Positions 15,001 through 34,464 of a DNA stretch of 64,000 nt are shown here, one piece after another. Made by a program: the position numbers and the translations under genes. Source of the stretch: Rhodocyclales bacterium (GTDB taxonomy: Bacteria > Pseudomonadota > Gammaproteobacteria > Burkholderiales > Rhodocyclaceae); NCBI GenBank assembly GCA_016235765.1, contig JACRIZ010000068.1, forward strand, positions 1-64,000, given 5' to 3'. Below the pieces are notes generated by a model that did not search any database, was not told where the DNA came from, and saw nothing but the letters and a program-made list of their open reading frames with translations. Numbering within the stretch: the first letter of the stretch is position 1; each line of letters opens with the position of its first letter.

Positions 15001-15630
15001 CGTGGCTTGCACAAGATCGAACCCGAGCAAGGGTTTGCCCGACTCGAAACCTTGATGCACGGCGGCGCGACCTGCGCCGCCGTGCTGCCCATCGACTGGC
15101 AGCGCTTTCTCGCCAGCCTGCCTGAGGGCATGGACCGGGGCTTTTATGCCGCCGTGACGCCGCGCGGCGGCGGGGCGCGCGGCGAGGCCGCGGCGAGCGC
15201 GACGGTCACAGTCGCTGCGCGCCTGAAAGCCCTGCCCGCTGGGCAGCGTCGAGAGGCCCTGATGCATCATCTGAGCGAACGCGCCTTGCATGTGCTCGAC
15301 CTGGAAGCCACCACGGCCGTGGATCCGCGCGCCCCGCTCAAGGATATTGGCCTCGATTCCCTGATGGCAGTCGAATTGCGCAACGCGCTGACGCGATCGA
15401 TCGGCCAGACCTTGCCGGCGACGCTGCTGTTTGATTACCCGACACTCGATGCCTTGACCGACCACCTGGCGCGTATCCTCGGATTGGAACCGGCACATGC
15501 TGCGTCCGACAGCGCACCCGCAAAGTCCGCCGACAAGGGAAGAACCGAACTGGCCGCGCTTTCAGATGAGGACGCCGAGGCCCTGCTGCTCGCCGAACTG
15601 GGCGACGCGACGACCGGAAAGATGCCATGA
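9013..15630 (+). CDS. PKS2: fully reducing module KS-AT-DH-ER-KR-ACP
   Basis: 2205 residues from ATG at 9013, 10 bp after PKS1. An in-frame GTG at 8953 would add 20 residues overlapping PKS1 and is less likely. N-terminal helical docking segment about 1-32, then KS with Cys205 and THGTGT; AT with Ser654 (GHSVGE) and YAFHS, close to the malonyl-type HAFH. DH: His964 in [10 protein letters not shown] and Asp1132 in DAALQ, both catalytic residues present. A structural ketoreductase half follows, about 1225-1470. ER about 1480-1790 with [14 protein letters not shown] about 1800-1985 with TGGLGALG and Tyr in [10 protein letters not shown] Ser2116 (GLDSL). No methyltransferase. Expected output: a saturated two-carbon extension. 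C-terminal tail [14 protein letters not shown] is a docking-like helix matching PKS3-PKS5. Confidence 0.96.
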
Positions 15631-18600: not shown

Positions 18601-20033
18601 CCTCCGACAGCTATCGGCATTTGCTCGTTCGCTGGCTCGAGCGCCTTGTTGCAGCGGGTCAATTGCGTATTGCCGGCGATCGCTTCGTGAGCGACGCGCC
18701 ATTGGCGACACCGGACCTTGCGGCGCACTGGAACGAAGCGCGGCGCATGCTCGCCGACAACCAGCCCTTGCTCGACTACATCCGTCATTGCGGCGATCTG
18801 CTGTACCCGGTGCTGACTGGGGCGCAAAGTCCGCTCGAGACGCTTTTCCCGGGTGGCGATTTTGCGTTGGCCGACGGCCTGTACCGACGTTCGGCCACCA
18901 TGCGCTACATCAACGGCCTGGCTGCTGCGGGGATCGAAGCCTTTGTCGCGGCGCGACCGACCGGTCCGATCCGCGTGCTCGAAATCGGCGCCGGCACCGG
19001 CGGCACGACCGCGGCACTGCTGCCCTGTCTCCCGGTCGAGCGTACGCGCTACAGGTATACGGATGTGTCGCCGTTCTTTTTCGATCGGGCGCGCGAAGGA
19101 TTCTCCGCCTATCCGTTCATTGAATTCGCCGAACTTGATATTGACCGGGATCTCGCCACCCAAGCGATTGCGCCGGGTTCGTTCGACCTGGTCGTTGTGT
19201 CGAATGCCGTGCATGCCAGCCGCGACTTGCGCGCAGCGCTGCGTCGATTGCATGCGCTGGTGGCGCCGGGCGGCATGTTGCTGCTGGTCGAATCGACGGT
19301 GCATCTGGCCTGGTTCGACATGACGACCGGATTGATAGAAGGCTGGCAGCATTTCGCCGACGACCTGCGCACCGACAACCCCTTGCTGCCCGCAAACACT
19401 TGGGTGACCGCGCTGCACGATGCCGGCTTCGATCATGCTGCCGCCTGGCCCGCACCCGGATCGGCCGCTGAGGCGCTGGGCCAGCATGTCGTCGTTGCCA
19501 ACGTCGGCGGCGCAGCAGCAGCGGATACCGAACTGGCTCCCGTCGAGACCGGCGCGCACGCAGTCTCCTCGGTCACGGCGGTATCTTCGGTCGAGCAGGG
19601 CCCGGCCTTGCGCCAGCGCGTGCTCGACAGCCTGCCCGACGAGCGCCTCGAAATCCTGCGCGACTTCGTGCGCGATCGCGTTGTGGCCATCCTCAAGCTC
19701 GACGCCAACGAGCCGCCCAGCCGCAATGACCGCCTGATGGATCTCGGTTTCGATTCCCTGATGGCGGTGCAATTGCGCAACCGCCTGGGCAGCGGCCTCG
19801 CGCTCGACAAGCCCTTGCCGGCTACCGTGATGTTCGATCACCCGACCATCGACGCGCTGGCGGCCTACTTGCTCGGCCGCATCGACGCGCCGAAGGCCGT
19901 GCCGACGCTGGCCGCCGGCCCTCAACCTGCCGGCGCCACCGCAAATCCCCAAATGCTCGGCGCTGCAGACATAGCCGCGCTGAGCGATGCGGAAATCGAG
20001 GCGCTGCTGCTTTCACGCTTGGAAAATACATGA
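15627..20033 (+). CDS. PKS3: module KS-AT-cMT-ACP
   Basis: 1468 residues, overlapping PKS2 by 4 bp. N-terminal docking helix about 1-38 (SPVKRALIEIRDLRARLATA). KS with Cys208, HGTGTS and NIGHLEA. AT with GGGAQ in place of GQGAQ, Ser656 in GHSLGE and YASHS, a signature associated with methylmalonyl-selective ATs, although the GHSQG partner motif is absent. C-methyltransferase about 985-1290: SAM loop LEIGAGTGGTT near 1118, and the His (NAVHAS) and Glu (LLLVES) expected in the active site. ACP Ser1377 (GFDSL). No KR, DH, ER or structural KR half, so the beta-keto group should remain and the alpha carbon should be methylated. If the AT really loads methylmalonyl-CoA, a gem-dimethyl group would result. 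Confidence 0.95.
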   Translation: MSTGQDSVDELSPVKRALIEIRDLRARLATAETAAREPVAIIGAGMCLPGGVHDLAGLWNLLRTGRDAITEIPPDRWDIEALYDEDADAPGKMFTRHGGFVDGVDRFDAEFFGISPREAETMDPQQRLLLETAWHAFEDAGIAPTSLHGSQTGVFLGVCNNDYGRMLFAHPERIDPYFSPGNAGSVVSGRLSYFLGAHGPSITIDTACSSSLVAIHLAMQSLRRGECDLALAGGINLILSPEMNINFSTARMMARDGRCKTFDAAADGYARGEGCGVVVLRRLCDCQASDRVLAVIRGSAINQDGRSGGLTAPNGPAQEAVIRAALESADLTPSQVGYVEAHGTGTSLGDPIEVQALGVALAPGRDPSQPVAIGSIKTNIGHLEAAAGIAGVLKVVAALQHREIPPHLHLREKNPHIDWAAYPIVVPTAATPWLPIGGRWLAGVSSFGFSGTNAHVIVEAAPDRVASAGAAMPDRPQHVLALSARDQRALASLVSACLERLANTADPAADICFTANTGRSHFAHRLSVRGATASDLRDGLRAVAEGRTAAEVVQGSSGSRPRIAFLFTGGGAQSAGMARGLYEHSPVFRQALDEAASILDPLIGTRLLDVLNAPGDAEAPINLTRYGQPALVAVEIALARLWRSWGIEPSVVLGHSLGEYAAAHVAGVISLEDALRIVVERTRQVDTLQASGSMATIFAPLTEVEAVLRDTGSSASIAAYNGPEQIVISGPSAAVDAVGAHFEGRGVRVSRLRVAYASHSSMMDPILAGFERALAGVRFCEPRVTFISNLTGAPAGLDLIGRPAYWRDHLRQPVRFAQSIQALAQLGITHCIEIGPHPVLVGMGAECLGDEAVTWLPSLRRENDDWQIILDSLQQVYAAGADVDWRGFDAGFARRCVSLPTYPFQRKRHWADWAGAIAPIDIAHAWTAANAALRRQADCGPIGLDLSGYDEKWACLERLTVAYAASVLRAAGVFMVPGEEATAEQVRDRLGASDSYRHLLVRWLERLVAAGQLRIAGDRFVSDAPLATPDLAAHWNEARRMLADNQPLLDYIRHCGDLLYPVLTGAQSPLETLFPGGDFALADGLYRRSATMRYINGLAAAGIEAFVAARPTGPIRVLEIGAGTGGTTAALLPCLPVERTRYRYTDVSPFFFDRAREGFSAYPFIEFAELDIDRDLATQAIAPGSFDLVVVSNAVHASRDLRAALRRLHALVAPGGMLLLVESTVHLAWFDMTTGLIEGWQHFADDLRTDNPLLPANTWVTALHDAGFDHAAAWPAPGSAAEALGQHVVVANVGGAAAADTELAPVETGAHAVSSVTAVSSVEQGPALRQRVLDSLPDERLEILRDFVRDRVVAILKLDANEPPSRNDRLMDLGFDSLMAVQLRNRLGSGLALDKPLPATVMFDHPTIDALAAYLLGRIDAPKAVPTLAAGPQPAGATANPQMLGAADIAALSDAEIEALLLSRLENT

Positions 20034-23000
20034 GCCACGCCAGTTCCTCGGACCCGAACGGCACCGCGTTGAACCCCTTGCAGCGAGCCTTTCTGGCCCT
20101 GCAAGAGGCGCAAGCCAAAGTTGCGGCGCTGGAAGGCGCTGCGCGTGAGCCAATCGCCGTGATCGGCCTCGGCGTGCGTGCGCCAGGCAATGTCGTCGAT
20201 GGCGCCAGCTTCTGGAAGCTCATGCACGACCAGATCGACGCCATCGGACCGGTTCCGGACGATCGCTGGGATGCCGACGCGCTGTTCGATCCGGATCCGG
20301 AAGTCCCCGGCCGCATTGCGACTCGCCATGGCGGATTTCTCGGGGCCGTTGACGGATTCGATCCCGGGTTCTTCGGCATCGCACCGCGTGAAGCGCAAGG
20401 CATGGACCCGCAGCAGCGCATGTTGCTGGAAGTCGCCTGGGAAGCCCTGGAGAACGCAGGTCAGGCTCCCGACCGACTCGATCGTTCCGCGACAGGCGTG
20501 TTCATCGGCATGTGCAGCAGCGACTACGCCTACATGCAGCTCATGTCCGGGGATCGCACGCTGCTCGATGCGCATTTCACTTCCGGCATCGCACACAGCA
20601 TCGTCTCGGGACGCTTGTCGTATTTGCTTGGCCTGCAGGGCCCCAGCGTGACCATCGACACCGCGTGTTCGTCGTCACTGGTCTCCGTGCATCTCGCGTG
20701 CCAGTCTTTGCGCAGCGGCGAGTCGCGCATGGCGCTGGCCGGCGGTGTGAACCTCATCTTGTCGCCCGACCTTTACATCGCGCTATCGCATTCGCGGATG
20801 CTGGCGCCGGACGGCCGTTGCAAGACTTTCGATGCGAGCGCAGACGGATTCGCGCGCGGCGAGGGCTGCGGCGTCGTGGTGCTCAAACGCTTGCGCGATG
20901 CGCAGGCCGACGGTGATCGCATCTTGGCCGTGATCCGCGGCAGCGCGGTCAATCAGGATGGCCCGAGCAGCAGCCTGACGGCGCCCAACGGGCCGGCCCA
21001 GGAAGCCGTGATCCGCGATGCCCTGGCGCACGCCGGCGTGGCACCCGCCGACGTCGGCTTCATCGAGGCGCACGGTACCGGCACCCAACTCGGAGACCCG
21101 CTCGAAGTTCATGCCCTGGGCGCCGTGTTCGGGCCGGACCGCGATCCGCAACAGCCGCTATTGATCGGCTCGGTCAAGACCAACATCGGGCACCTGGAAG
21201 GCGCCGCCGGCGTGACCGGGCTGATCAAGCTCGTGCTTGCGTTGCAGCACAAGACCATCCCGGCGCACTTGCACTTCCGCACGCCGAGTCCGCACATCTC
21301 CTGGAGCGACTGGCCGGTACGGGTTCCCGCGCAGGAGACGCCCTGGATGCCGATACGCGGGCGCCGCATCGGCGGCGTGAGCTCCTTCGGATTCAGCGGC
21401 ACCAATGCGCATCTGATCGTCGAAGAGGCGCCGGTTTCGGCTGGGGTGGCCGCCGCAGAACGGCCCGCACATCTGTTGACGATATCGGCGCGCGATGAAT
21501 CGGCGCTGGCCGAGTTGGCTGCGCGTCTGGCGTCGGCTCTCGAAAGCCAGCCGGACAGCGCGCTGGCCGACTTTTGTTTCACGGCGAATGCCGGTCGGTC
21601 GCATTTTGCCCAGCGAGCGGCGATCCTCGCGCACAGCGTGGCCGAGATGCATGCCTCGTTGCGTGCGCTGGCTTCGGGCCAAACCGCGGAAGGCATGCGC
21701 ATCGCACGTGTGACGCGCCGCGATCCCCCGCGAATTGCCTTTCTGTACACCGGTCAGGGGGCGCAATACCCCGGCATGGCGCGCGGGCTGTACGAAACCG
21801 CGCCGGTATTTCGCGCAGCGCTCGATCGCTGTGCTGCGCTGCTGGCCCCGCTGCTCCCGCGACCGCTGCTCGATGTCATGTTCGCTGCCGATGCGGGTTC
21901 GACGCAAGCCGCTTCGAACGCGATCGACGAAACGGCCTATACCCAACCCGCACTGTTCGCCCTTGAATACGCGCTCACCGAACTGTGGCGATCCTGGGGG
22001 GTGACGCCGAGCGCGGTAATCGGCCATTCGGTGGGCGAATATGCGGCGGCATGCGCTGCCGGCGTCATGTCTCTCGAGGACGCCGCCCGGCTCATCGCCC
22101 ACCGGGGGCGGCTGATGCAGGCGCTGCCTGCGGGTGGCGCCATGGCAGCGATCTTCGTGCCAGAGGCCACCATTCGTGCTGCCGTCGCTCCGCACGCGTC
22201 GCGGGCGTCTGTGGCAGCGGTCAATGGGCCAGAGCAGACGGTCATTTCCGGCGCGGCCGATGTGATCGACTCCATCTGCCGGCAATTCACCGACCAGGGC
22301 GTGCGCTGCCAACGCTTGCCGGTGTCGCATGCCTTTCATTCGCCGTTGATCGATCCGATGCTCGATGCCTTCGAGCGCGAGGCGGCGACGGCGAGTTTCT
22401 GCACACCCCGGCTGCGCCTGGTGTCGAATCTGACCGGCAGGATTGTCCAGTCCGAGGAGATCACGCGGGCGCGCTATTGGCGCGAGCATGTCCGTGAGGC
22501 GGTGCGCTTTGGCGACGGTCTCGACGCGCTGGCCGCACTCAAACTCGATGCCTATGTCGAAATCGGCCCGCATCCGACTTTGTTGTCGTTCGCCGGCACA
22601 GCCGATGGCGGCGAAGGGCCGGCGCCGGTGGTATCGCTGCGCAAGGGCAAGCCGGATTGGGAGCAGATGCTCGGTGCGGTGGCATCGCTGTATCTGGTCG
22701 GAGCGAAGGTCGATTGGCGCGGCGTCGAGCAGGGCCGGAGACCGCGCCTGATCGAATTGCCGACATATCCATTCCAGCGCGAGCGCTACTGGTTCCAGGC
22801 CAAGCCGGCGCAAGTGCGGCAAGCTTCGCGGGGGCGGGCGACCGGTCACCCGATCCTCGGCACGCGCTTGCGCAACGCGTCATCGGAGACGATATTCGAG
22901 GCGCAGATCAGTGCCGATCACCCCGGGTTCGTGCGGCAGCATCGGGTCCAGGGCCATGTGGTGATGCCGGCCACCGCTTATCTGGACACCCTGTTGGCCG

Positions 23001-26000
23001 CCGCGCATGACCTGCTGGGGCCCGGTCCGGTTTGGGTCGAGGACGTAGCGGTCAAGGAAGCCATGTTGCTCGATGACGACGGCGGCGAGCGCGTCGTCCA
23101 GGTCGTCGCCGCAAGCGCGCAGGACGGATCGATCGCTGCCAGTGTCAGCAGCATCGACGATGGTGCCGACGACGGAGCATCGTGGATCGGCCATGTCAGC
23201 GCGCGCCTGCGGTCCGGTGCGCCACCGGCGGTATCGTCATTGTCGCTCGACGCGCTGCGGCAGTGTTGCAGCCAGGCCGAGACCCCCGAGGCCTTCTATG
23301 CCGATTTCGAGCGCCGCGGGTTGGCTTTCGGGCCGGCATTTCGCGCCTTGCGCCAATTGTGGAAGGGCGATGCGCAAGCCTTGGGCGAAGTCGAGCTTGC
23401 GGCGGATCTGAGGCATGAGGCGGGCGTCTGGCGCATGCATCCGGTGCTGCTCGACGGATGCCTGCAGGTCATGGCGGCAGCCTTGGCCCAGGAGGCCGGC
23501 GATGCGCTGTACCTGCCGATCGGCATCGGGCGCTATTCCTTGTTGGGAACGCCGGGCAGCAAATGCTGGAGCCATGTCCAGATCCAGGCCGGTGGCGCCG
23601 AGACCCGGCGCGCGCAGATACACGTGTTTTCCGAGGCAGGCGGCTTGTTGGCCAGATTGGACGATGTGCAGCTCAAGCGCGTCGGGCGTGACGCTCTCGG
23701 TCGCCTGGGCGAGCGCTGGCTCGACGATTGCCTGTACGAAACGCGATGGCTGCCGCGCGAATTGCCGGGCACGATGCCCGGTCATGCATTGTCGATCCCC
23801 GTGCTGGCCAAGGCGGCATCGGCCGCGATGGCCGGATTGCGCGAATCTGCAAAGCTCGATGCCTATGACCGGTTCCTGCCTCGGCTGGAGGCCCTGTGTG
23901 CCGACTATGTCGAGCATACCGTCCGGCAACTCGGCTGGACGCCGATGGCCGGTGAAACCGTCATCGAGGCCGAATTGGCCGATCGGCTCAAGGTTGCGTC
24001 CAGGCATCGACGCCTGTTCGGTCGATTGCTGGCGATTCTGAATGAGGCCGGACAGCTTGAACGAAGTGCTTCGGGCTGGCTTGTGATGCGTGGCTTGGCG
24101 ACCGTGCAGCCGGCGCACACGCTGGCGCAACTGCAAGCTGCGCATCCATGCGGCGAGGTCGAACTGGAATTCACCGGCCGGGTCGCCAGCGAATTCGCCG
24201 AGGCCCTGCGCGGTGAAGTCGAGCCCATGCAATTGCTGTTCCCGGGAGGCTCGCTGGACACCGCCGAGCGCTTGTATCGCGATACGCCCACGGCGCAGTT
24301 CTACAACGGGCTGATGGCCGAAGTGATTGCCGCGGCAGTCAGCGCGCGTAGCGCCGGTCGTGTCCTGCGCGTGCTCGAAATCGGCGCCGGCACCGGCGGG
24401 ACCACCGCCCATGTCGTGCCGCGTCTGCCGGCCGACGGGGTCGAGTACACCTTCACCGACATCGGCCCTTTGTTCGTTGCCAAGGCGCGCGAGCGATTCG
24501 GCGCCCATGGCTTCATGCGCTTCCAGGTGCTCGATCTCGAGCGCGATCCGCAGGCGCAGGGTTTGGCTCCGGCTTCGTTCGACATCGTCATTGCTTCGAA
24601 TGTCATTCACGCAACTGCCGACCTGCGTCACACCCTGGCGCGTGTTCGCGACCTGCTGGCGCCAGGTGGTCTGCTGGCGATGCTCGAAGTCACGGCACCG
24701 CAGCGCTGGTTCGATCTGACCGTCGGCTTGACCGATGGCTGGTGGGCCTTCACCGACAGCGATCTGCGCGCCGACTACGCCACCTTGCCGCGCGCAGGCT
24801 GGTTCAATCTGCTCGAGTCATGCGGGTTCGAGTCGGCGACGGCCTTGCCCGAGGGCAAGCAGCAGCATGGCACGCTTGCCCTGCAGTCGCTGTTCCTGGC
24901 GCGCAAACCCGCCGGCGCGGTTGCGCAAGCAGGCGGCAGCGACTGGTTGCTGTTTGCCGATCGGGGTGGACTCGCGACCGGACTGGCGCAGACCCTGCGC
25001 GCCGGAGGCGAACGCTGCACCGTGGTTCAGGCAGGCGCGCACTATGGGGCTGGCGCGGCCGGTAGCGCCGATGCGGTCATCGACCCGGCGTCGGCCGCGG
25101 ACTATCGACGGCTGCTGGCCGAGTTGCGCACGGCAGGCCACAACATCGGCAAGGTGTTTCATGCCTGGAGCCTTGATGCGCCCGCCTGGGAGGGAATTTC
25201 GGACGGTGCGCTGGCGGCGGCGCAGACCACCGGTGTCGTGAGCGCAATGCTGTTGGCGCAGGCTCTGGTGGCGCAGGCCCCCGTGCCGTGCCTGTGGATT
25301 GCCACTCGCGGCGGACAACAGGCCGATACGGGCGATCGCGAACTCGATCCGGCACAGGCGCCGGTGTGGGGTTTGGGCAAGGCCCTGGCGCTGGAACATC
25401 CCGAATTGCGCTGCACCTGCGTTGATCTTGATCCGGACGCCCCTCTGACCGCCCTCGATGCCCTGATCGCCGAACTCGGCGATGGCAGCGGCGAGGCCCA
25501 GATCGCATTGCGCGCCGGCGGGCGGCGGATTGCCCGGTTGGCGCGCGTCCGGCGCAAGTCCGAAGTGCGCCGTCCGGATCCCTATCGGCTGGTTCCGTCG
25601 GTGCGCGGCTCGCTGGATGCATTCCAGCTCGACCCACTGGAGCGTCGCGTACCCGGGCCGGGCGAGGTCGAGATAGCGGTCGAGGCGACCGGCCTGAACT
25701 TCAAGGACGTACTCAATGTGCTGGGCATGTACCCGGGTGATCCGGGTCCCTTGGGCGGCGAATGCGCGGGGCGGGTGAGTGCCGTAGGCCCTGGCGTCAC
25801 CCATGTGCGTCCGGGCGACGACGTCCTGGCAGTGGCCGGCGGCAGTTTTTCATCGCATGTGCTGGCGCGTGCGGAATTTGTTCAGGTGCGCCCGCCAGGC
25901 GTGACCGCGCCGGAAGGCGCGGCCTTCCCGATCGCTTTCCTGACGGCCGAGTTCTGTCTCGGCCATCTGGCGCGGATGCAGGCCGGCGAGCGCGTCCTGA

Positions 26001-27838
26001 TCCATGCCGCGGCCGGCGGAGTCGGCATGGCCGCGGTGCGCCTGGCGCAGCGTGCCGGTGCGATCGTGTTTGCCACGGCCGGATCGGCCGCCAAGCGCGC
26101 GATCGTTCGCTCGATGGGCGTGGCGCACGTGTTCGATTCGCGCAGCGCCGCGTTCGCTGACGAGATCCTGGCGCTGACCGATGGTCGTGGCGTCGACCTG
26201 GTGCTCAATTCACTGTCGGGCGATTTGATCGACGCGAGCTTCCGCGCCTTGGCCCGCAATGGACGTTTTGTCGAGATCGGCAAGCGCGGCATCAAGACGC
26301 CCGAATGGGTCGAGGCGCTCGATCGCGGTCTGCGCTATTTTGTTGTCGATTGGGGCGAAACCGGTGCCCGCGAGCCCGCGCTGATCGGCGGCATGCTCGG
26401 GCGCCTGGTCGAGGAATTGCGCAACGGAGCGCTGACGTCCTTGCCGCGCCATGTCTTTGCGCTCGACGATGCGCAGCGCGCCTTCCGATTCATGGCGCAG
26501 GCGCGCCATACCGGCAAGATCGTCGTCACGCACCGTGCGCCGGGGCCGGTCACGATCCGCCGCGACGGCACCTATCTGGTGACCGGCGGTTTGTCAGGCC
26601 TCGGTCTGGTGGTCGCGCGCTGGCTGGCCGAGCGCGGCGCCGGGTGTCTGGTCCTGATCGGGCGGCGTGGCGTTACCCGGGAGGCCGCTGCGGAAATCGA
26701 CGCATTGCGCGCGCTCGGCAGCCAGGTCCTGGCCGAATCGGTGGATGTCAGTGACGAAGCGGCGCTGGCGGACCTGTTGTCACGCGCCCGACGCGATGGG
26801 CCGCCCTTGCGCGGCATCGTGCACAGCGCGGGCGTGCTTGCCGATGCCGGCTTGCTGCAACAGGATGCGGCTCGCTACGCCGAAGTCTTCAAACCCAAGG
26901 TGCAAGGCGGCTATCTGCTCGATGCCCTGACCCGTGCCGATCCGCTCGACTGTTTCGTGTTGTTCTCTTCGGTGGCAGCGGTGCTCGGCTCGCCAGGGCA
27001 GTCCAATCACTCGGCAGCCAATGCCTTTCTGGATATGCTGGCGCGCGAACGGCGCAGCCGCGGGTTGCCGGGGCTGAGCATCAATTGGGGCGCCTGGACC
27101 GATGTCGGTGCCGCGGTCGACCGCGGCGTAGCCGAACGCATCGAAGCCATGGGCTTGGGCGCCGTGACGCCGGCGCAGGGCTTGCAGGCCCTGGAGCGCC
27201 TGCTCGGCGAGGATCGTGCGCAAGTCGCGGTGCTGCCGGCCGACTGGCGTCGCTATTTCGCGCAGGCACGGCATGTCGATTACGCGGGCAAGCCCTGCGT
27301 ACCGGCGTTCCTCGCCGACCTGGCCAGGGATGCAGCCGGCACTGCGACGGCGACCCCTGCTGCCGGCGGCAGCGGGGATCGGGAGGCAGGGGCGACCGTG
27401 CGTCCGGTCGAGTTGCGCGAGCAATTGGCAACTGCCGCGCCCGGCCGCCGCAGGCCGCTGGTCGCCGCCTTCGTGCGCGAGCGCGCGCTGCGTGCCCTGG
27501 GTGTCGATCAGTCGCGCGCCATCGACCCGCGCGCGCCCCTCGGCGAACTCGGCCTCGATTCGCTGCTCGCGGTCGAACTGCGCAATACGCTAGGCACGGC
27601 GCTGGGGCAGTCCTTGCCGGCGACCTTGTTGTTCGACTACCCGACCATTGATGCGCTGACCGACTACTTGCTCGAAGAGGTGCTGCAACTCGGCGCGCCC
27701 GCGGCGCCGGCGGCCGCGGCTCCCGCAGGCACGACAACGCGGCCGATTAGCATGGTCGGGGCGATCGAAGATCTTTCCGACGATGAAGTGGACCGGCTGC
27801 TCGCGCAGCGTGCACGTGGCAAGGGCGCAAACCAATGA
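20030..27838 (+). CDS. PKS4: module KS-AT-DH-cMT-ER-KR-ACP
   Basis: 2602 residues, the largest protein here, overlapping PKS3 by 4 bp. Docking helix about 1-42; KS Cys213; AT Ser667 (GHSVGE) with HAFHS, malonyl type. DH with His971 in HRVQGHVVMP and Asp1142 in DGCLQ. C-methyltransferase about 1300-1620 (LEIGAGTGGTT near 1449; NVIHAT and LLAMLE). ER about 1850-2180 with HAAAGGVGMAAV. KR about 2180-2370 with TGGLSGLG, but the catalytic Tyr position reads His2327 (SNHSAAN), unlike the other five KRs of this cluster. ACP Ser2511 (GLDSL). If KR is active the unit is alpha-methyl, fully saturated; if not, DH and ER cannot act and a beta-ketone remains. C-terminal tail has the LSDDEVDRLL docking-like motif. 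Confidence 0.96.
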   Translation: MSHASSSDPNGTALNPLQRAFLALQEAQAKVAALEGAAREPIAVIGLGVRAPGNVVDGASFWKLMHDQIDAIGPVPDDRWDADALFDPDPEVPGRIATRHGGFLGAVDGFDPGFFGIAPREAQGMDPQQRMLLEVAWEALENAGQAPDRLDRSATGVFIGMCSSDYAYMQLMSGDRTLLDAHFTSGIAHSIVSGRLSYLLGLQGPSVTIDTACSSSLVSVHLACQSLRSGESRMALAGGVNLILSPDLYIALSHSRMLAPDGRCKTFDASADGFARGEGCGVVVLKRLRDAQADGDRILAVIRGSAVNQDGPSSSLTAPNGPAQEAVIRDALAHAGVAPADVGFIEAHGTGTQLGDPLEVHALGAVFGPDRDPQQPLLIGSVKTNIGHLEGAAGVTGLIKLVLALQHKTIPAHLHFRTPSPHISWSDWPVRVPAQETPWMPIRGRRIGGVSSFGFSGTNAHLIVEEAPVSAGVAAAERPAHLLTISARDESALAELAARLASALESQPDSALADFCFTANAGRSHFAQRAAILAHSVAEMHASLRALASGQTAEGMRIARVTRRDPPRIAFLYTGQGAQYPGMARGLYETAPVFRAALDRCAALLAPLLPRPLLDVMFAADAGSTQAASNAIDETAYTQPALFALEYALTELWRSWGVTPSAVIGHSVGEYAAACAAGVMSLEDAARLIAHRGRLMQALPAGGAMAAIFVPEATIRAAVAPHASRASVAAVNGPEQTVISGAADVIDSICRQFTDQGVRCQRLPVSHAFHSPLIDPMLDAFEREAATASFCTPRLRLVSNLTGRIVQSEEITRARYWREHVREAVRFGDGLDALAALKLDAYVEIGPHPTLLSFAGTADGGEGPAPVVSLRKGKPDWEQMLGAVASLYLVGAKVDWRGVEQGRRPRLIELPTYPFQRERYWFQAKPAQVRQASRGRATGHPILGTRLRNASSETIFEAQISADHPGFVRQHRVQGHVVMPATAYLDTLLAAAHDLLGPGPVWVEDVAVKEAMLLDDDGGERVVQVVAASAQDGSIAASVSSIDDGADDGASWIGHVSARLRSGAPPAVSSLSLDALRQCCSQAETPEAFYADFERRGLAFGPAFRALRQLWKGDAQALGEVELAADLRHEAGVWRMHPVLLDGCLQVMAAALAQEAGDALYLPIGIGRYSLLGTPGSKCWSHVQIQAGGAETRRAQIHVFSEAGGLLARLDDVQLKRVGRDALGRLGERWLDDCLYETRWLPRELPGTMPGHALSIPVLAKAASAAMAGLRESAKLDAYDRFLPRLEALCADYVEHTVRQLGWTPMAGETVIEAELADRLKVASRHRRLFGRLLAILNEAGQLERSASGWLVMRGLATVQPAHTLAQLQAAHPCGEVELEFTGRVASEFAEALRGEVEPMQLLFPGGSLDTAERLYRDTPTAQFYNGLMAEVIAAAVSARSAGRVLRVLEIGAGTGGTTAHVVPRLPADGVEYTFTDIGPLFVAKARERFGAHGFMRFQVLDLERDPQAQGLAPASFDIVIASNVIHATADLRHTLARVRDLLAPGGLLAMLEVTAPQRWFDLTVGLTDGWWAFTDSDLRADYATLPRAGWFNLLESCGFESATALPEGKQQHGTLALQSLFLARKPAGAVAQAGGSDWLLFADRGGLATGLAQTLRAGGERCTVVQAGAHYGAGAAGSADAVIDPASAADYRRLLAELRTAGHNIGKVFHAWSLDAPAWEGISDGALAAAQTTGVVSAMLLAQALVAQAPVPCLWIATRGGQQADTGDRELDPAQAPVWGLGKALALEHPELRCTCVDLDPDAPLTALDALIAELGDGSGEAQIALRAGGRRIARLARVRRKSEVRRPDPYRLVPSVRGSLDAFQLDPLERRVPGPGEVEIAVEATGLNFKDVLNVLGMYPGDPGPLGGECAGRVSAVGPGVTHVRPGDDVLAVAGGSFSSHVLARAEFVQVRPPGVTAPEGAAFPIAFLTAEFCLGHLARMQAGERVLIHAAAGGVGMAAVRLAQRAGAIVFATAGSAAKRAIVRSMGVAHVFDSRSAAFADEILALTDGRGVDLVLNSLSGDLIDASFRALARNGRFVEIGKRGIKTPEWVEALDRGLRYFVVDWGETGAREPALIGGMLGRLVEELRNGALTSLPRHVFALDDAQRAFRFMAQARHTGKIVVTHRAPGPVTIRRDGTYLVTGGLSGLGLVVARWLAERGAGCLVLIGRRGVTREAAAEIDALRALGSQVLAESVDVSDEAALADLLSRARRDGPPLRGIVHSAGVLADAGLLQQDAARYAEVFKPKVQGGYLLDALTRADPLDCFVLFSSVAAVLGSPGQSNHSAANAFLDMLARERRSRGLPGLSINWGAWTDVGAAVDRGVAERIEAMGLGAVTPAQGLQALERLLGEDRAQVAVLPADWRRYFAQARHVDYAGKPCVPAFLADLARDAAGTATATPAAGGSGDREAGATVRPVELREQLATAAPGRRRPLVAAFVRERALRALGVDQSRAIDPRAPLGELGLDSLLAVELRNTLGTALGQSLPATLLFDYPTIDALTDYLLEEVLQLGAPAAPAAAAPAGTTTRPISMVGAIEDLSDDEVDRLLAQRARGKGANQ

Positions 27839-30800
27839 GCGATTTCCTGGACCGGATAGAGAAACTCACGCCCAAGCGCCTGGCGCTGTTGGCGCTTGAG
27901 CAGCACGAGCAGATAGAGGCCGCCGATCGGCGTGCCCATGAACCGCTCGCAGTGGTCGGCATGGCCTGTCGCTTCCCCGGCGCCGACGATCCGGCGGCCT
28001 TCTGGGAATTGCTCGCCAAGGGCCGTGACGCCATTGGCGAGGTCCCGGCGGATCGCTGGGATATCGATGCCTATTTCGATCCCGATCCCGATGCCCCGGG
28101 CCACATGTCGGTGCGCGCGGGCGGATTCCTCGCAAAGGTCGACGAGTTCGATGCCGCGTTCTTTGGCATCGCACCGCGTGAGGCCCTGACCATGGATCCA
28201 CAGCAGCGGCTCTTGCTCGAAGTCGCGTGGCAGGCGCTGGAGAACGCAGGCATCGCGCCTGAACGCCTGGCGGGGACCGCCACTGGCGTCTTTGTCGGCA
28301 TCTGCAATTCCGATCATTTCCATCGCCTGCTGCAGCGCGGCCCGGAAGCGATCGACGCCTATCTTGCCTCCGGCAATGCGCACAGTGTCGCTGCCGGGCG
28401 TATCTCCTATTGCCTGGGGCTGCAAGGACCGGCCATGGCGATCGATACCGCGTGTTCATCGTCGCTGGTGGCGCTGCACGCGGCAACGCGCAGCCTGCGC
28501 AGCGGCGAATCGCGGGTCGCGCTGGTCGGCGGTGTCAATCTGATGTGCACGCCCGAGACAACCATTGCTCTGACCAAAGGGCACATGCTGGCCCCGGACG
28601 GCCGGTGCAAGACCTTTGACGACAGCGCGGACGGGTTCTCGCGTGGTGAAGGCTGCGGCGTGCTGGTGCTCAAGCGTCTGGAAGACGCGCAAGCCGATGG
28701 CGACCACGTGCTCGCACTCATCCGCGGCAGCGCAATCAATCAGGACGGCCGCAGCGGCGGCCTTACCGTGCCCAACGGCCCGGCCCAGGAAGCGGTGATC
28801 CGGGCTGCACTCGCCGACGGCGGTGTGGCTGCCGCCGAGATCGACTATGTCGAGGCCCACGGCACCGGCACTTCGCTCGGGGACCCGATCGAAGTGCGCG
28901 CGCTTGCCGGCGCGCTGGGAGCGGCGCGGACCATGACGGACCCGCTGCTGATCGGATCGGTCAAGACCAACATCGGTCATCTCGAGTCGGCGGCGGGTGT
29001 CGCTGGCATGATCAAGGTCATCCTGTCGCTGCGGCATGAGGCGATTCCGCCCCACCTGCATTTCACCAAACCCAGCACACACATCGCCTGGTCGAAGTAT
29101 CCGGTCAAGGTGACTGCGGCCGGGCAGCCATGGCCGCGCACCGCACGCCGTCGACTTGCGGGCGTGAGTTCCTTCGGCTTCAGCGGCACCAATGCCCACG
29201 TCGTGCTCGAAGAGGCGCCGCCGGTGGCAGCGGACGGTGGCGCGCCGGGCGCGCTGCGGCCGTTGCATTGCATGCCCTTGTCGGCGCGATCGGAGGAAGC
29301 GCTGGAGCAAGTCGCGGCGCGCACCCGTGACACGCTGGTTGGCGCTACGGCATTCGCCGACGCGGCCTACAGTGCCGGCGTCGGCCGCAGCCACTTCCAC
29401 GTCCGGGCGGCGGTCGTTGCCGCCGACACGGGCGAGGCGCGCGCGGCGCTGCAGGCTTTGTCATGCGGCGAATCGCATGCGGCCTTGTTCCGGGGCGCGA
29501 CCGAGCCCGGGCAGGTTCCTGAAGTCGTATTCCTGTTCACCGGGCAGGGTTCACAGTATCCGGGCATGAGCCAGAAGCTCTATGACAGTGCGCCGGTGTT
29601 TCGCGAAGTCATCGACCGCTGCGACGAACTGCTCGGTGCCGATGCGCAGGGGCGCACGCTCAAGATGGTGCTGCAGGCCGGGCCGGCCGAGGGGGCGCCG
29701 ATCCACGAAACTGCGTGGACCCAACCCGCACTGTTTGCGGTCGAATACGCGCTGACCCGGTTGTGGGCCTCCTGGGGCATCGTGCCCGCGGCGGTGATTG
29801 GCCATTCGGTGGGCGAGTACGTCGCGGCCTGTGTGGCTGGCGTGTTCTCGTTGGAAGAGGGCCTGAAGTTGATCGCCGAGCGCGGTCGCCTGCTGCAGTC
29901 CCTGCCGCCTGGCGGTGCGATGGCCGCGCTGTTCACTTCGCCCGAGGAAGTCGAACGCGCGATCGCGCCATTTGCCGATCGGTTGGCGATTGCTGCAGTC
30001 AATGCCGTCGACAGCGTGGTCATTTCCGGCGATGCCGCGGCTGTTGATGCCGTGCTTGCGGAATTTGCCGCGCGCGACATTCAGGCCCAGCGCCTGCTGG
30101 TTTCATTTGCGGCGCACTCACCGTTGGTTGCTCCGGCGCTGGATGCCATGGAAGCCTGCGCGCGCTCTGTCGCCATGCGCGCGCCGCGCATACCCGTGGC
30201 TTGGAACGTGACCGGCGGCGCAGCGCTGCCTGGCGCAGCGCCCGACGCGCACTATTGGCGACGTCATTTGCGCGAGCCGGTGCGCTTCGCTGCGGGGGTT
30301 GAATCCCTGTACCGCGATGGCTACCGCGTATTCCTCGAGGTCGGTCCGCATCCGACGCTGGTCGCACTGGCGCAGCACTCGCTGCCGGAAGCCGGGCCGC
30401 TCCTGCTGACATCCCTGCGCCGGGGCAAGGACGACTGGCTCGAAATGCTCACCAGTCTGGCGCGGCTCTACGTCAACGGTGCGGCGGTCGATTGGTCCGG
30501 TTTCGATGCTGCGCACGGCCGCCGCCGCATCGACCTGCCCACCTATCCGTTCGAACGGCAGTCGTACTGGATCACGCCGGATGCGCCGCGCCAGCGAGCG
30601 GCGGGCAGGGCCACGGGTTCGACGCTGCTTGGCAATCGCCTGCCGACTGCGCTGGCGATGTTCGAGACCATACTGGCACCGACAACGCTGGACTACCTGG
30701 GCGACCATCGCGTCCACGGCGCCGTGCTGGTTGCTGGACCGGTGTTCCTCGAACTTGCGCAAGCCGCGGCGCGGCAAGTCGCCGGGCCCGGGATGCGCGG

Positions 30801-33800
30801 CGTCGAAGTCTTCGCGATCCGCGAACCGCTGGTACTGCCCGATGCCGGCCGCATCGTGCAGACGCACGTGGGCGATGAACTGGACGGCGTGCGCGCGTTC
30901 TCGATCTACAGCCGCGATGTCGATGGCAGTGGGGAGTGGCGCTTGCATGCCACCGGACGACTGGTCGCCACCGATGCCAGGGCGGCCGTCGCCGGCGCCG
31001 ACATCACGGGCTTGTCGGCCACTCAGGATGCCCTGGGCGCCGCCCAATCCTGTGACCCCTACTACGAACGGCTTGCCGGGCTGGGCATTGCGCTTGGTCC
31101 GGCTTTCCGCAGCCTGGTGCTTGCGCATCGCACCGATGGCGAGGTCCTGGCGCAAATTGCGCTGCCCATGGCGGCTGCAACAGACGCCCTGGCCTGGGCG
31201 CATCCGGCACTGCTCGACGGCGCCCTGCAGGCCGTCGGCTTGGCGCTGCCGCCGGCCGAGGATGATGCGACCGCCTATCTGCTCACCGAGGTCGATCGCC
31301 TCGATTTGGCCGGGCCTTTGCCGGCCCGGTTGTGGTGTCACGCCCGGGTGCGCAATGCGCGCGATCAGAACCCCGCCGAGTGGCAAGCCGACGTGACGCT
31401 GCGGTCGCTCGAAGGCGGCGTGCTCGGCGTCATTGAGGGTGTGCGCCTGCATCGCGCCACGCGCGACGCTTTAGCACGCGCTGCCGGGCAGGGCGGCAGT
31501 GGCGACATGTTCTACCGTGTGGAATGGGAGCCTGCACCGCTGGTGCCGCGGGCCGCCGCAGCATTGGCGGCGCCCGAGGGGTTCATGGCCGGCATGCGCG
31601 ACCGTTTTGCCTCGTTGGCGGCACGGTATGGTCTGGCGATCTACGAACAACTGCTGCCTGAACTGGATCGCTTGAGCGGTGATCATGTGGCCGCCGCTCT
31701 GCGCACCCTCGGCTTCGACAGCACCTGCGGTCGCGTCTTCACAGTGCCGGAGGAAGCCGCACGTCTCGGTGTCGTGGCCTGCCACGCGCGTTTGTTCAAG
31801 CGTTTGCTCGACATGCTGGTCGAGGATGGTGTCTTGCGTGTCCGGGGCGCCGGTCTCGAAGTGATCGGACCGCTGCCGAGTGCGGATGCGGCGGACCGCT
31901 ACGAAACCTTGCTGGCGCGTCATGCGCAGACCCAGGGCGAATTGCGCACCCTGCGTCGGTGCGGTCCCGAGCTTGCCCGCGTGCTGCGCGGCGAGCAGGA
32001 TCCGTTGCAACTGTTGTTCCCCGGGGGGTCGTTCGACGAAGCGCGCGAGTTGTATGTCGAGTCGCCATTTGCGCAGACCTACAATCGCGCGCTCGGTGAG
32101 GCGCTGCAGGCGGCGCTTGCCACAGTGCCGCCAGGCGCACGTTTGCGCGTGCTGGAAATCGGCGCAGGTACCGGCGGCACCACCACTTATGTGCTGCCCC
32201 TGCTGCCGGCCGACCGCACCGAATACACCTTTACCGATCTGTCGCCGCTCTTCCTCGAACGCGCGGCCGAACAGTTTGCCGCCTACCCCTTTGTCCGCCA
32301 TGCGCTACTCGACATCGAGGCGGATCCCGTCGGCCAGGGTTTCGCGGCCGGTGCCTACGATATCGTGATTGCCGCCAACGTGCTGCACGCCACGGCCGAT
32401 CTGCGTCAGAGCCTGGTGCACGCACAACGCCTGATGGCGCCCGGCGCCATGCTATTCCTGCTGGAAGGTGTGGCGCCGGAGCGCTGGGTCGACCTGACAT
32501 TCGGCCTCACGGAAGGCTGGTGGCGCTTCGCGGACACTGACTTGCGCCCGCACTATCCTCTGATCGATCGCGGCGCGTGGCTCAATCTATTGCAGAGTGT
32601 GGGCTTCAATGAATCGGCAGCGCTACCCGACGCAACCTGGACCGCGCGTGGCGCGGCCCAGCAGTCGTTGGTCGTCGCGCGCGCGCCGCTGGGCGGTCGT
32701 CACTGGGTCGTGGTCGGCGCCGATGGCGGCGTGGGCACGGCGCTCGCCGAACTCTTGCGCGCACGTGGCGACATCGCGATGCTATTGCCGGTCGATGCGT
32801 CCGACGGAGCGGTGCCTCCGGAGGCCGATTTGGTTTACCTCGGTGCGCTCGAATTGGCGGCGCGCCCGATGGCGGACGCATCGGCAGTGCGCGTGGCCCA
32901 GCATCTGGCCTGCGACACGCCGCTGCGTTGGCTGAAGGCGATGGCACGCGGGAGCGGTCGCGCCTGGCTCGCGACGCAAGGCGTTCAGGCTGGCGTCGGA
33001 GCGGTAGTGCCCGGGGCGCCCTGGCAGGCACCCTTGTGGGGATTGGGCCGCGGATTTGCGCTGGAGCATCCGGACCGCTGGGGCGGTCTGATCGATCTCC
33101 AGGAAGGGGATGCAGCGGCGGTTGCCGCTACATTGCTGGCGGCGCTCGATGGCGCAGACCAGGAAGACCAGACAACCTGGCGCGGCGGACGACGCAGCGC
33201 ACCTCGCCTCGTCCATGCACCCGCGCCGCGTCCCGCCCAAATCGATCTGGCGGGCGACGGCACGTATCTCGTCACCGGCGGCTTCGGCGGCCTGGGCCTG
33301 TTGGTCGCACGCTGGCTGGTCGATCGTGGTGCGCGACATATTGCCTTGCTCGGCCGTCATCCCGATCCGACGTCCGACGGCGTGCGTGCCCTTGAGGCCC
33401 TGGGCGCCAAGGTGTTGTCGCTGCAGGGTGATGTCGGTGACGCGCCGGCCATGGAGCAGTTGTTCGCCCGCTTGCGGGTCGAAGCCCCGCCGCTGCGCGG
33501 CGTGATTCATGCGGCGGCCGCTTTGAGCGCCGCGCCACTCGTCGATCTGACCTCAGCCCAGGTGGCCGAGATGATGCGGCCGAAACTCGATGGAAGCCTC
33601 GTGCTCGAGCGACTGACGCGCGATCCCCCAATCGACTTCCTGGTGCTGTTCTCGTCGACCACCGCCTTGCTCGGCGCTTCGGGCCTGGCGCACTATGCGG
33701 CAGCGAATGCCTTCCTCGATGCCCTGGCGGCAGCCGCCGACGGCGCGAAGCGCCGCGTCATTTCGATCAATTGGGGGACATGGGAGGTAATGCGTCTGGC

Positions 33801-34464
33801 CTCTGCCGAAAGCCAGCGTAGCTACCTTGCGGGCGGGCTGCTGCCCATGAGTGCAAGCGATGCGCTCGATGCGCTCGGTCGCCTGCTCGCCGATCCGCGT
33901 CCGCAGGCGGTGGTGGCGAAGGTAGATTGGGGCGTGCTGAAGGCCCTGCACGAGGCGCGCCGCCCACGGCCGCTGCTGACGCATCTGGGCAAGGTGCAGC
34001 AGGCCGCACGGCGCGTGGCGCGAACTGTCGCTGGCCCTGGCCTGGCCGAACGGCTGGCGGCTGTGCCGCCCTCACAGCGTCACGACCTGCTGGTCGACTT
34101 TGTCCAGCGCGAGGTCGCCGATGTGCTCGGCCTGGCCGGTGCTTCGGCGGTGCCTTTGACTACCGGCCTGTTCGACCTGGGCATGGATTCGTTGATGTCG
34201 GTCGAGCTCAAGCGCCGCCTGGAGCGCGGCGCCGAGCGTCCAATGCCGTCCACGTTGACCTTCAACTATCCCAATGTCGCTGCGCTGGCGCGTTTCCTGG
34301 AAACGCAACTGGCGGTCAGGATCGCCGAGCCCGCTGGCTCCGCAGCACCGGTCGCAAGTGCTGCGGCGACCTCCGTGGTGCCTGAGGCAGACGTCGATCT
34401 GGACGCCTTGAGTGATGATGAACTCGAGGCGCGCTTGATGGCCCGACTGGAGCAGATGCGGTGA
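27835..34464 (+). CDS. PKS5: module KS-AT-DH-cMT-KR-ACP
   Basis: 2209 residues, overlapping PKS4 by 4 bp. N-terminal docking helix about 1-36; KS Cys207 with HGTGTS and NIGHLES; AT Ser658 (GHSVGE) with FAAHS at the specificity position. DH has His958 in HRVHGAVLVAG, where the usual closing Pro is Ala, and Asp1128 in DGALQ. C-methyltransferase about 1290-1620 with GAGTGG at 1443, NVLHAT and LLEG. A structural KR half about 1640-1790 leads to KR about 1805-1990 with TGGFGGLG and Tyr in AHYAAAN. ACP Ser2119 (GMDSL). No ER. Expected output: alpha-methyl-alpha,beta-unsaturated unit, or alpha-methyl-beta-hydroxy if the DH is impaired. C-terminal tail LSDDELEARLMARLEQ is the docking-like helix. Confidence 0.95.
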   Translation: MSDFLDRIEKLTPKRLALLALEQHEQIEAADRRAHEPLAVVGMACRFPGADDPAAFWELLAKGRDAIGEVPADRWDIDAYFDPDPDAPGHMSVRAGGFLAKVDEFDAAFFGIAPREALTMDPQQRLLLEVAWQALENAGIAPERLAGTATGVFVGICNSDHFHRLLQRGPEAIDAYLASGNAHSVAAGRISYCLGLQGPAMAIDTACSSSLVALHAATRSLRSGESRVALVGGVNLMCTPETTIALTKGHMLAPDGRCKTFDDSADGFSRGEGCGVLVLKRLEDAQADGDHVLALIRGSAINQDGRSGGLTVPNGPAQEAVIRAALADGGVAAAEIDYVEAHGTGTSLGDPIEVRALAGALGAARTMTDPLLIGSVKTNIGHLESAAGVAGMIKVILSLRHEAIPPHLHFTKPSTHIAWSKYPVKVTAAGQPWPRTARRRLAGVSSFGFSGTNAHVVLEEAPPVAADGGAPGALRPLHCMPLSARSEEALEQVAARTRDTLVGATAFADAAYSAGVGRSHFHVRAAVVAADTGEARAALQALSCGESHAALFRGATEPGQVPEVVFLFTGQGSQYPGMSQKLYDSAPVFREVIDRCDELLGADAQGRTLKMVLQAGPAEGAPIHETAWTQPALFAVEYALTRLWASWGIVPAAVIGHSVGEYVAACVAGVFSLEEGLKLIAERGRLLQSLPPGGAMAALFTSPEEVERAIAPFADRLAIAAVNAVDSVVISGDAAAVDAVLAEFAARDIQAQRLLVSFAAHSPLVAPALDAMEACARSVAMRAPRIPVAWNVTGGAALPGAAPDAHYWRRHLREPVRFAAGVESLYRDGYRVFLEVGPHPTLVALAQHSLPEAGPLLLTSLRRGKDDWLEMLTSLARLYVNGAAVDWSGFDAAHGRRRIDLPTYPFERQSYWITPDAPRQRAAGRATGSTLLGNRLPTALAMFETILAPTTLDYLGDHRVHGAVLVAGPVFLELAQAAARQVAGPGMRGVEVFAIREPLVLPDAGRIVQTHVGDELDGVRAFSIYSRDVDGSGEWRLHATGRLVATDARAAVAGADITGLSATQDALGAAQSCDPYYERLAGLGIALGPAFRSLVLAHRTDGEVLAQIALPMAAATDALAWAHPALLDGALQAVGLALPPAEDDATAYLLTEVDRLDLAGPLPARLWCHARVRNARDQNPAEWQADVTLRSLEGGVLGVIEGVRLHRATRDALARAAGQGGSGDMFYRVEWEPAPLVPRAAAALAAPEGFMAGMRDRFASLAARYGLAIYEQLLPELDRLSGDHVAAALRTLGFDSTCGRVFTVPEEAARLGVVACHARLFKRLLDMLVEDGVLRVRGAGLEVIGPLPSADAADRYETLLARHAQTQGELRTLRRCGPELARVLRGEQDPLQLLFPGGSFDEARELYVESPFAQTYNRALGEALQAALATVPPGARLRVLEIGAGTGGTTTYVLPLLPADRTEYTFTDLSPLFLERAAEQFAAYPFVRHALLDIEADPVGQGFAAGAYDIVIAANVLHATADLRQSLVHAQRLMAPGAMLFLLEGVAPERWVDLTFGLTEGWWRFADTDLRPHYPLIDRGAWLNLLQSVGFNESAALPDATWTARGAAQQSLVVARAPLGGRHWVVVGADGGVGTALAELLRARGDIAMLLPVDASDGAVPPEADLVYLGALELAARPMADASAVRVAQHLACDTPLRWLKAMARGSGRAWLATQGVQAGVGAVVPGAPWQAPLWGLGRGFALEHPDRWGGLIDLQEGDAAAVAATLLAALDGADQEDQTTWRGGRRSAPRLVHAPAPRPAQIDLAGDGTYLVTGGFGGLGLLVARWLVDRGARHIALLGRHPDPTSDGVRALEALGAKVLSLQGDVGDAPAMEQLFARLRVEAPPLRGVIHAAAALSAAPLVDLTSAQVAEMMRPKLDGSLVLERLTRDPPIDFLVLFSSTTALLGASGLAHYAAANAFLDALAAAADGAKRRVISINWGTWEVMRLASAESQRSYLAGGLLPMSASDALDALGRLLADPRPQAVVAKVDWGVLKALHEARRPRPLLTHLGKVQQAARRVARTVAGPGLAERLAAVPPSQRHDLLVDFVQREVADVLGLAGASAVPLTTGLFDLGMDSLMSVELKRRLERGAERPMPSTLTFNYPNVAALARFLETQLAVRIAEPAGSAAPVASAAATSVVPEADVDLDALSDDELEARLMARLEQMR

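What the first reader, a model, noticed from the sequence alone, without database searches (positions are those of the whole stretch)
26999..27022. PKS4 ketoreductase has His where the other five have the catalytic Tyr
PKS1, 2, 5, 6 and 7 carry Tyr at the N-Y-A-A-A-N position, PKS4 reads S-N-H-S-A-A-N (His2327). PKS4 also has DH and ER, which are useless if no beta-hydroxy group is formed. Either the KR works with His, or the module leaves a ketone and its DH and ER are idle. A similar His variant may exist in other PKSs; I cannot check.
Basis: seen in the sequence. Interest (0 to 1): 0.5.

Follow-up and report, generated by a model that had tools for sequence, protein, structure and literature searches.

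The report
Histidine-type ketoreductase in methylating PKS modules
One enzyme of this natural-product assembly line has histidine where textbooks require tyrosine; it looks like one of a widespread group of such enzymes, usually placed where the chain has just been methylated, rather than a broken part.

Summary
In detail: PKS4 (window 20030-27838 +) has His2327 (CAC, 27008-27010) at the KR catalytic Tyr column; the other five window KRs have Tyr. It is neither a lone defect nor a likely sequencing error. The His motif hit at least 118 stretches of one-genome-per-species contigs (80 loci held, 13 named phyla). Of 111 distinct His-KRs collected, 111 keep Lys and 108 Ser. Of 107 with a readable lid residue (EryKR1 Met1847), none has Met or Leu; 83 of 120 Tyr-KRs do; PKS4 has Ala2361. 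His-KRs mostly sit in modules with a C-methyltransferase, as PKS4 does. In their modules the DH His and Asp are intact in 50 of 50 and ER glycines in 60 of 60 domains aligned, so DH and ER do not look like relics. Irp1/HMWP1 of yersiniabactin, whose KR is assigned a reduction, has His here. Best reading: KR4 is an active B-type reductase of a recurrent, remodelled His class, and PKS4 makes a fully reduced alpha-methyl unit. I found no description of the class in the library searched. The methyltransferase link has exceptions both ways (PKS5 is one) and is only moderately supported after correction for relatedness; the lid link is stronger. No activity was measured.

The parts
20030..27838 (+). 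PKS4, one module KS-AT-DH-CMT-ER-KR-ACP, 2602 aa
26561..27163 (+). KR catalytic domain of PKS4 (approximate bounds)
   Evidence: Pfam KR 213.4 bits, 218.9 bits; bounds; AlphaFold2 model pLDDT 83.1, pTM 0.83, matched to solved PKS and FAS KRs
27008..27010 (+). CAC, His2327, in place of the catalytic Tyr
27110..27112 (+). GCC, Ala2361, lid residue that is Met or Leu in most Tyr-KRs; equals EryKR1 Met1847 by its distance (+8) from the conserved Trp
26897..26899 (+). Lys2290, catalytic Lys, kept
26969..26971 (+). Ser2314, catalytic Ser, kept
27020..27022 (+). Asn2331, catalytic Asn, kept
26843..26845 (+). Asp2272 of L-A-D, the B-type (LxD) marker
   Evidence: marker per PMC5331325 passages
24170..24829 (+). 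C-methyltransferase domain of PKS4
   Evidence: Pfam Methyltransf_12; used as query
22844..23704 (+). DH domain of PKS4, HxxxGxxxxP motif present
25640..26530 (+). ER domain of PKS4, GGVGMA present

Best explanation
KR4 is a working NADPH-dependent ketoreductase of a recurrent His class. His2327 (with Ser2314, and Lys2290 behind the cofactor) takes over the role of the Tyr in protonating the forming alkoxide, and the active site is remodelled at the lid (Ala2361 in place of Met, the residue that in EryKR1 is modelled as touching the phosphopantetheine arm). The class is used mostly in modules whose C-methyltransferase acts on the beta-ketoacyl chain. PKS4 would load malonyl (HAFH AT), condense, methylate, reduce to the D-3-hydroxy (B-type), dehydrate, enoyl-reduce, and pass on a saturated alpha-methyl unit. 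Shown by sequence: the residues, the domain set, the spread of the class, the lid coupling. Inferred: activity of KR4, His as proton donor, the product. Why methylating modules favour His is not known; a KR that waits for methylation, or a pocket shaped for the methylated substrate, are possible.
For: Among 76 distinct KRs reached from the methyltransferase, without any KR pattern, 56 are Tyr, 19 His, 1 Ala. Retained catalysis in 111 distinct His-KRs: Lys 111, Ser 108, Asn 109 (the Asn, unlike Lys and Ser, is fixed by the search pattern in the pattern-seeded loci). In His-KR modules, domains long enough to align: DH catalytic His 50 of 50 and Asp 50 of 50 (Tyr-KR modules 26 and 30 of 30); ER GGxG glycines 60 of 60; CMT Glu and His 74 of 74. 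Irp1 of E. coli Nissle has His1698 at this column with Lys and Ser kept; the KR of that assembly line is described as doing NAD(P)H-dependent reduction (PMC9547227 figure legend). Lid: Met/Leu in 0 of 107 His-KRs against 83 of 120 Tyr-KRs; the most divergent KR column besides the catalytic one. Correlated evolution, Pagel test: His-lid LR 74.8, His-CMT LR 46.0; without the His-seeded loci 37.6 (p 1.4e-7) and 17.2 (p 0.0018). His and Tyr alternate on the tree: 19 changes, at least 6 forced by well-supported branches. Metazoan FAS KR with Tyr2027 changed to Phe keeps some reduction, with Ser2014 partly compensating (PMC12856111 passages), so the Tyr is not absolutely needed there. LxD Asp in 105 of 111 His-KRs against 68 of 94 Tyr-KRs, which fits dehydration of a B-type product.
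Against: No activity was measured, and in the ten PDB alignments printed (five, five) no His-KR appears, so I know of no solved structure. A review states that all reductase-active KRs have the Tyr, Ser, Lys, Asn tetrad (PMC5331325). Irp1 has Cys for Asn, so it is not an exact twin. The CMT link has exceptions: in the cis-AT set that leaves out His-seeded loci, 12 Tyr-KRs sit in CMT modules against 18 His, PKS5 of this window among the Tyr; the one decided module with CMT but no recognised AT (L246) is Tyr; His-KRs without CMT exist (L044, L079, L269, L270, and L199 without a recognised AT). Using only well-supported branches, paired tests are not significant: His-lid about 4.5 of 6 contrasts the same way and none against, median p 0.06; His-CMT 2.7 with and 0.3 against of 5; in the other two trees 2.6:0 of 3 for the lid, and for the CMT 1.8:0.2 of 4 and 0.9:0.3 of 3. 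One CMT-module KR has Ala at the site (L200), perhaps a dead derivative. Active-site loop and lid are the low-confidence parts of the model (residues 152-157 and 189-196).
Confidence: 0.75

Rival explanations
1. KR4 is dead; the module leaves an alpha-methyl beta-ketone and its DH and ER are relics.
For: Loss of the catalytic Tyr is the usual sign of an inactive KR. A CMT module without any KR stands in this window (PKS3, CMT at 18810-19430). L200 has Ala at the site.
Against: Lys and Ser are almost invariant in 111 His-KRs. DH and ER active sites are intact in the 50 DH and 60 ER domains of His-KR modules that could be aligned. Irp1 has His. The lid change is coupled to His across the tree. 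Decay would not be expected to produce these.
Confidence: 0.12
2. Sequencing or assembly error (CAC for TAC) in an ordinary Tyr-KR.
For: One transition separates the codons; the genome is a draft of 136 contigs.
Against: The lid Ala2361, 34 residues away, is neither Met nor Leu, as in 107 of 107 His-KRs with a readable lid, while the five Tyr-KRs of the window have Met or Leu. The surrounding motif matches other His-KRs.
Confidence: 0.02
3. KR4 is active, but the His is of little consequence (reduction leans on Ser), and the CMT association reflects shared ancestry rather than function.
For: His is clustered on the tree (shuffle test) and well-supported independent contrasts are few. CMT modules without a recognised DH are Tyr in 9 of 9 of the CMT-seeded cis-AT set, though Irp1 and five His-seeded modules of that kind are His. 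Methylmalonyl modules such as DEBS reduce alpha-methyl substrates with Tyr (recalled).
Against: At least 6 switches are forced by supported branches, with the lid never going against His. In the 76 KRs reached without a KR pattern the only replacement besides His is one Ala, which is not what free drift would give.
Confidence: 0.25

Closest known systems
Yersiniabactin HMWP1 (Irp1) KR, E. coli Nissle 1917
   Same: cis-AT module with CMT before KR; His at the catalytic Tyr column; Lys and Ser kept; lid not Met (Arg)
   Different: no DH or ER recognised; Asn replaced by Cys; product keeps the hydroxyl (recalled); long branch on the tree
Canonical B-type cis-AT PKS ketoreductases (EryKR1 and kin, Pfam PF08659)
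   Same: fold, TGGxxGLG, Lys, Ser, Asn, LxD Asp
   Different: His for Tyr, Ala for lid Met (EryKR1 Tyr1813 and Met1847, numbering from PMC3422181 passages)
C-type (reductively inactive) KRs (features recalled)
   Same: lack of the catalytic Tyr
   Different: KR4 keeps the rest of the active site and sits with intact DH and ER
AT-DH-CMT-ER-KR-ACP-KS-AT synthases of sponge symbionts (perhaps the Sup family; identity recalled, not tested)
   Same: same domain order in the reducing module and His-KR
   Different: lid Glu in those looked at one by one (L052, L082, L094); extra KS-AT at the end

Membership tests
Type I PKS ketoreductase domain (PF08659) | profile match over the whole domain and PKS KR fold | tested here: met
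   218.9 bits, positions 1-180 of 180; Foldseek to MAS-like, AmphB, EryKR1 and FAS structures, query TM-score 0.75-0.88 in the 50 listed
Type I PKS ketoreductase domain (PF08659) | NADPH-binding TGGxxGxG | tested here: met
   TGGLSGLG starting at residue 2185
Canonical reductase-active KR | Lys, Ser, Asn of the tetrad | tested here: met
   Lys2290, Ser2314, Asn2331
Canonical reductase-active KR | catalytic Tyr | tested here: not met
   His2327
B-type KR | second Asp of LDD | tested here: met
   L-A-D, Asp2272
His-type KR class as defined in this report | His at Tyr column with Lys, Ser, Asn kept and lid not Met/Leu | tested here: met
His-type KR class as defined in this report | C-methyltransferase in the same module (usual, not universal) | tested here: met
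His-type KR class as defined in this report | reductase activity | not testable with these tools
   inferred from Irp1 and from intact DH and ER
C-type inactive KR | no reduction | not testable with these tools
   sequence evidence points the other way

The most novel reading that the evidence does not exclude
His-KRs are a distinct catalytic class that arose repeatedly, in which an imidazole donates the proton and the lid is opened, and whose job is order of operations: they reduce the beta-ketone efficiently only after the module's C-methyltransferase has acted, so a two-residue code (His plus non-Met lid) marks modules where methylation must come first.
Probability: 0.25. Interest if true: 0.75.

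Novelty: new variant of a known kind. Interest (0 to 1): 0.6.

Why it matters
A KR without the catalytic Tyr is commonly called inactive when polyketide structures are predicted from sequence (recalled), and a published review states that the tetrad with Tyr is present in all active KRs (PMC5331325). If His-KRs reduce, structures predicted for many methylating modules, in 13 named phyla here, would be wrong by an oxidation state. It would also give a two-residue sequence marker and a handle on an open question: how a module makes sure methylation happens before reduction.

Tried and rejected
Ten paper searches, all that were allowed, listed no paper whose title, abstract start or passages that I opened describe His-KRs; most subscription papers are not in the library, and I opened passages of 11 papers only. 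blastn of the KR region against E. coli genomes found nothing, so Irp1 was reached through CFT073 coordinates and a ybtU search.

Idea 'CMT means His' as a strict rule: rejected. PKS5 in this window, L233, L230 and nine CMT modules without a recognised DH are Tyr; L044, L079, L269, L270 and L199 are His without CMT. Idea 'His is needed for any alpha-methyl substrate': weakened; three Tyr-KRs with lid Met or Leu sit behind AT motifs that begin with Tyr (two of them YAFH, so only one is the methylmalonyl YASH), and DEBS uses Tyr (recalled). Idea 'one inherited His clade': rejected by the tree with both columns removed (0% of 200 bootstrap trees; the bootstrap had not settled). AT-motif reading was patchy (many 'none') and is not used for counts. 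The AlphaFold2 model does not settle His geometry because loop and lid have low confidence.

Counting notes. The His counts were read off the printed rows; each sample includes a genome chosen beforehand (the window's own, G302, G299), without which they are 0 of 8, 5 of 109 and 4 of 33. CMT was looked for only between the KR and the domain before it, so a CMT placed after the KR, as in many trans-AT modules, is not counted. Not every CMT match was fetched; 80 regions were, of which 12 (L217-L228) come from genomes chosen for having His and are left out of the counts called not His-seeded. DH, ER and CMT residues were read only on domains above a length limit (50 of 63, 60 of 64 and 74 of 79 domains in His-KR modules); the DH Gly of HxxxGxxxxP is often replaced (regex found in 37 of 63) while the His is not. 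In the trees, rows too similar to one of the same residue class, too short, without a lid letter, of undecided context, or Tyr-KRs from modules without a recognised AT were dropped (113, 115 and 92 rows kept). Of the 40 loci were chosen for His and 38 for Tyr, out of 145 matches.

Full report
What is there. PKS4 is a single complete module, KS-AT-DH-CMT-ER-KR-ACP. Its KR has His2327 at the catalytic Tyr column, with Lys2290, Ser2314, Asn2331, the nucleotide-binding TGGLSGLG and the B-type Asp2272 in place. The five other KRs of the cluster have Tyr. The AT reads HAFH, the DH HRVQGHVVMP and the ER GGVGMA. The PKS4 KR is the best Pfam KR match of the six by a small margin, and its predicted fold matches solved PKS and FAS KRs.

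How common. The 80 loci held carry 82 His matches, and 3 Tyr matches to the same pattern opened to Tyr, and lie in 13 named phyla, two loci having none. With the pattern open to both residues, His was 1 of 10 in the window's own phylum (299 genomes; the one is PKS4), 6 of 110 in the phylum of the Myxococcaceae locus L091 (146 genomes) and 5 of 35 in the phylum of the Nostoc locus L019 (244 genomes). Leaving out the genome each sample was centred on, these are 0 of 8, 5 of 109 and 4 of 33.

Module context. Among distinct His-KRs from the His-seeded loci, 54 of 56 with a readable context sit behind a C-methyltransferase; 25 more are cut off by the end of the locus. Of the 12 His matches found with the open pattern, 9 (PKS4 included) lie in CMT modules, 2 (L269, L270) do not, and 1 (L194) is undecided because a stop lies between the KR and the upstream part. 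In 40 loci fetched mainly for Tyr matches, 36 distinct Tyr-KRs had a readable module and none had a CMT before the KR; 12 more were unreadable. Started from the CMT instead, cis-AT modules with DH and CMT had 17 His, 2 Tyr (one, L230, cut at its 5' end) and 1 Ala, while CMT modules without a recognised DH had 9 Tyr and no His; Irp1 and five His-seeded modules of that last kind are His. Over the sets that leave out His-seeded loci, cis-AT: His with CMT 18, His without 2, Tyr with CMT 12, Tyr without 44 (Fisher p 8e-8; not corrected for relatedness). KRs in modules without a recognised AT are Tyr but for L199 and L223. So His predicts a CMT well, DH plus CMT predicts His fairly well, and CMT alone does not.

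A second residue. Comparing 111 His- with 94 Tyr-KRs column by column, the largest difference besides the catalytic column is the residue just after WGxWxxxG (0.80 on a 0-1 scale; next 0.56). Of 107 His-KRs with a letter there, none has Met or Leu (Glu 59, Ala 30, Ser 8, Ile 5, Gln 2, Arg 1, Val 1, Lys 1); of 120 Tyr-KRs, 83 do. His-KRs outside the main group agree: Irp1 has Arg, L269 and L270 have Gln, while of their Tyr relatives L305 and L306 have Met and L307 Leu; L290, L295, L300 and L044 align poorly there and L079 has no letter. By distance from the conserved Trp (+8) this is Met1847 of EryKR1, listed as contacting phosphopantetheine in a docking study whose passages I read (PMC3422181; offset).

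Relatedness. With both columns removed, a maximum-likelihood tree of 115 KRs needs 19 Tyr/His changes (bootstrap range 16-19, bootstrap not settled), at least 6 forced by supported branches; an earlier quick tree of 113 rows gave 10 and 3. On supported branches alone the lid moves with His in about 4.5 of 6 contrasts and against it in none (median p 0.06); the CMT moves with His in 2.7 and against it in 0.3 of 5 (not significant). Pagel tests on the best tree give LR 74.8 for the lid and 46.0 for the CMT, and 37.6 and 17.2 without any His-seeded locus. These tests take the tree as given, and many of its branches are weak, so I take the lid coupling as well supported and the CMT link as moderately supported.

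Is it active? In His-KR modules the DH catalytic His and Asp are intact in 50 of 50, the ER glycines in 60 of 60 and the CMT Glu and His in 74 of 74 domains long enough to align. Irp1 of E. coli Nissle has His1698 at this site. The KR of that assembly line is described as reducing the keto group in a figure legend of PMC9547227; the secondary alcohol of yersiniabactin and its in-vitro reconstitution (Miller et al. 2002, seen only as a citation in PMC3672683) are recalled, not read. In metazoan FAS, Tyr2027Phe keeps some reduction and Ser2014 partly compensates (PMC12856111 passages). Together these make an active KR4 the likeliest reading. How His serves, and why methylating modules prefer it, are inferences.

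Novelty. The ten paper searches listed nothing that I could see to describe His-KRs as a class, the CMT link or the lid coupling, and one review states that active KRs have the Tyr (passages). The library lacks most subscription papers, so the observation may exist elsewhere.

Noticed in passing
window 15627-20033: PKS3 has a C-methyltransferase (18810-19430) and a YASH AT motif but no KR match, so it should leave a ketone, perhaps with extra methylation.
   Followed up: partly
window 27835-34464: PKS5 is DH-CMT-KR with Tyr, lid Leu and no LxD Asp: a Tyr exception in the same cluster, although its CMT is 56% identical to that of PKS4.
   Followed up: partly
L200 (KR of the DH-CMT module): KR with Ala at the catalytic position and lid Ala, with Lys, Ser and Asn kept: perhaps a dead descendant of a His-KR.
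   Followed up: no
L269, L270: AT-KR modules without CMT whose KR reads GQV(E/D)HCAAN, with lid Gln: probably a separate origin of His.
   Followed up: partly
L021, L022, L030 and others of L019-L098: Very similar CMT-ER-KR(His)-ACP-KS-AT synthases in metagenome-assembled genomes of many phyla, perhaps the Sup family spread by transfer.
   Followed up: no
L082: Bryobacterales ORF with a His-KR and, in the next module (DH, no CMT), a Tyr-KR that falls inside a well-supported clade of His-KRs: a possible natural switch with loss of the CMT; its lid is Asp.
   Followed up: partly
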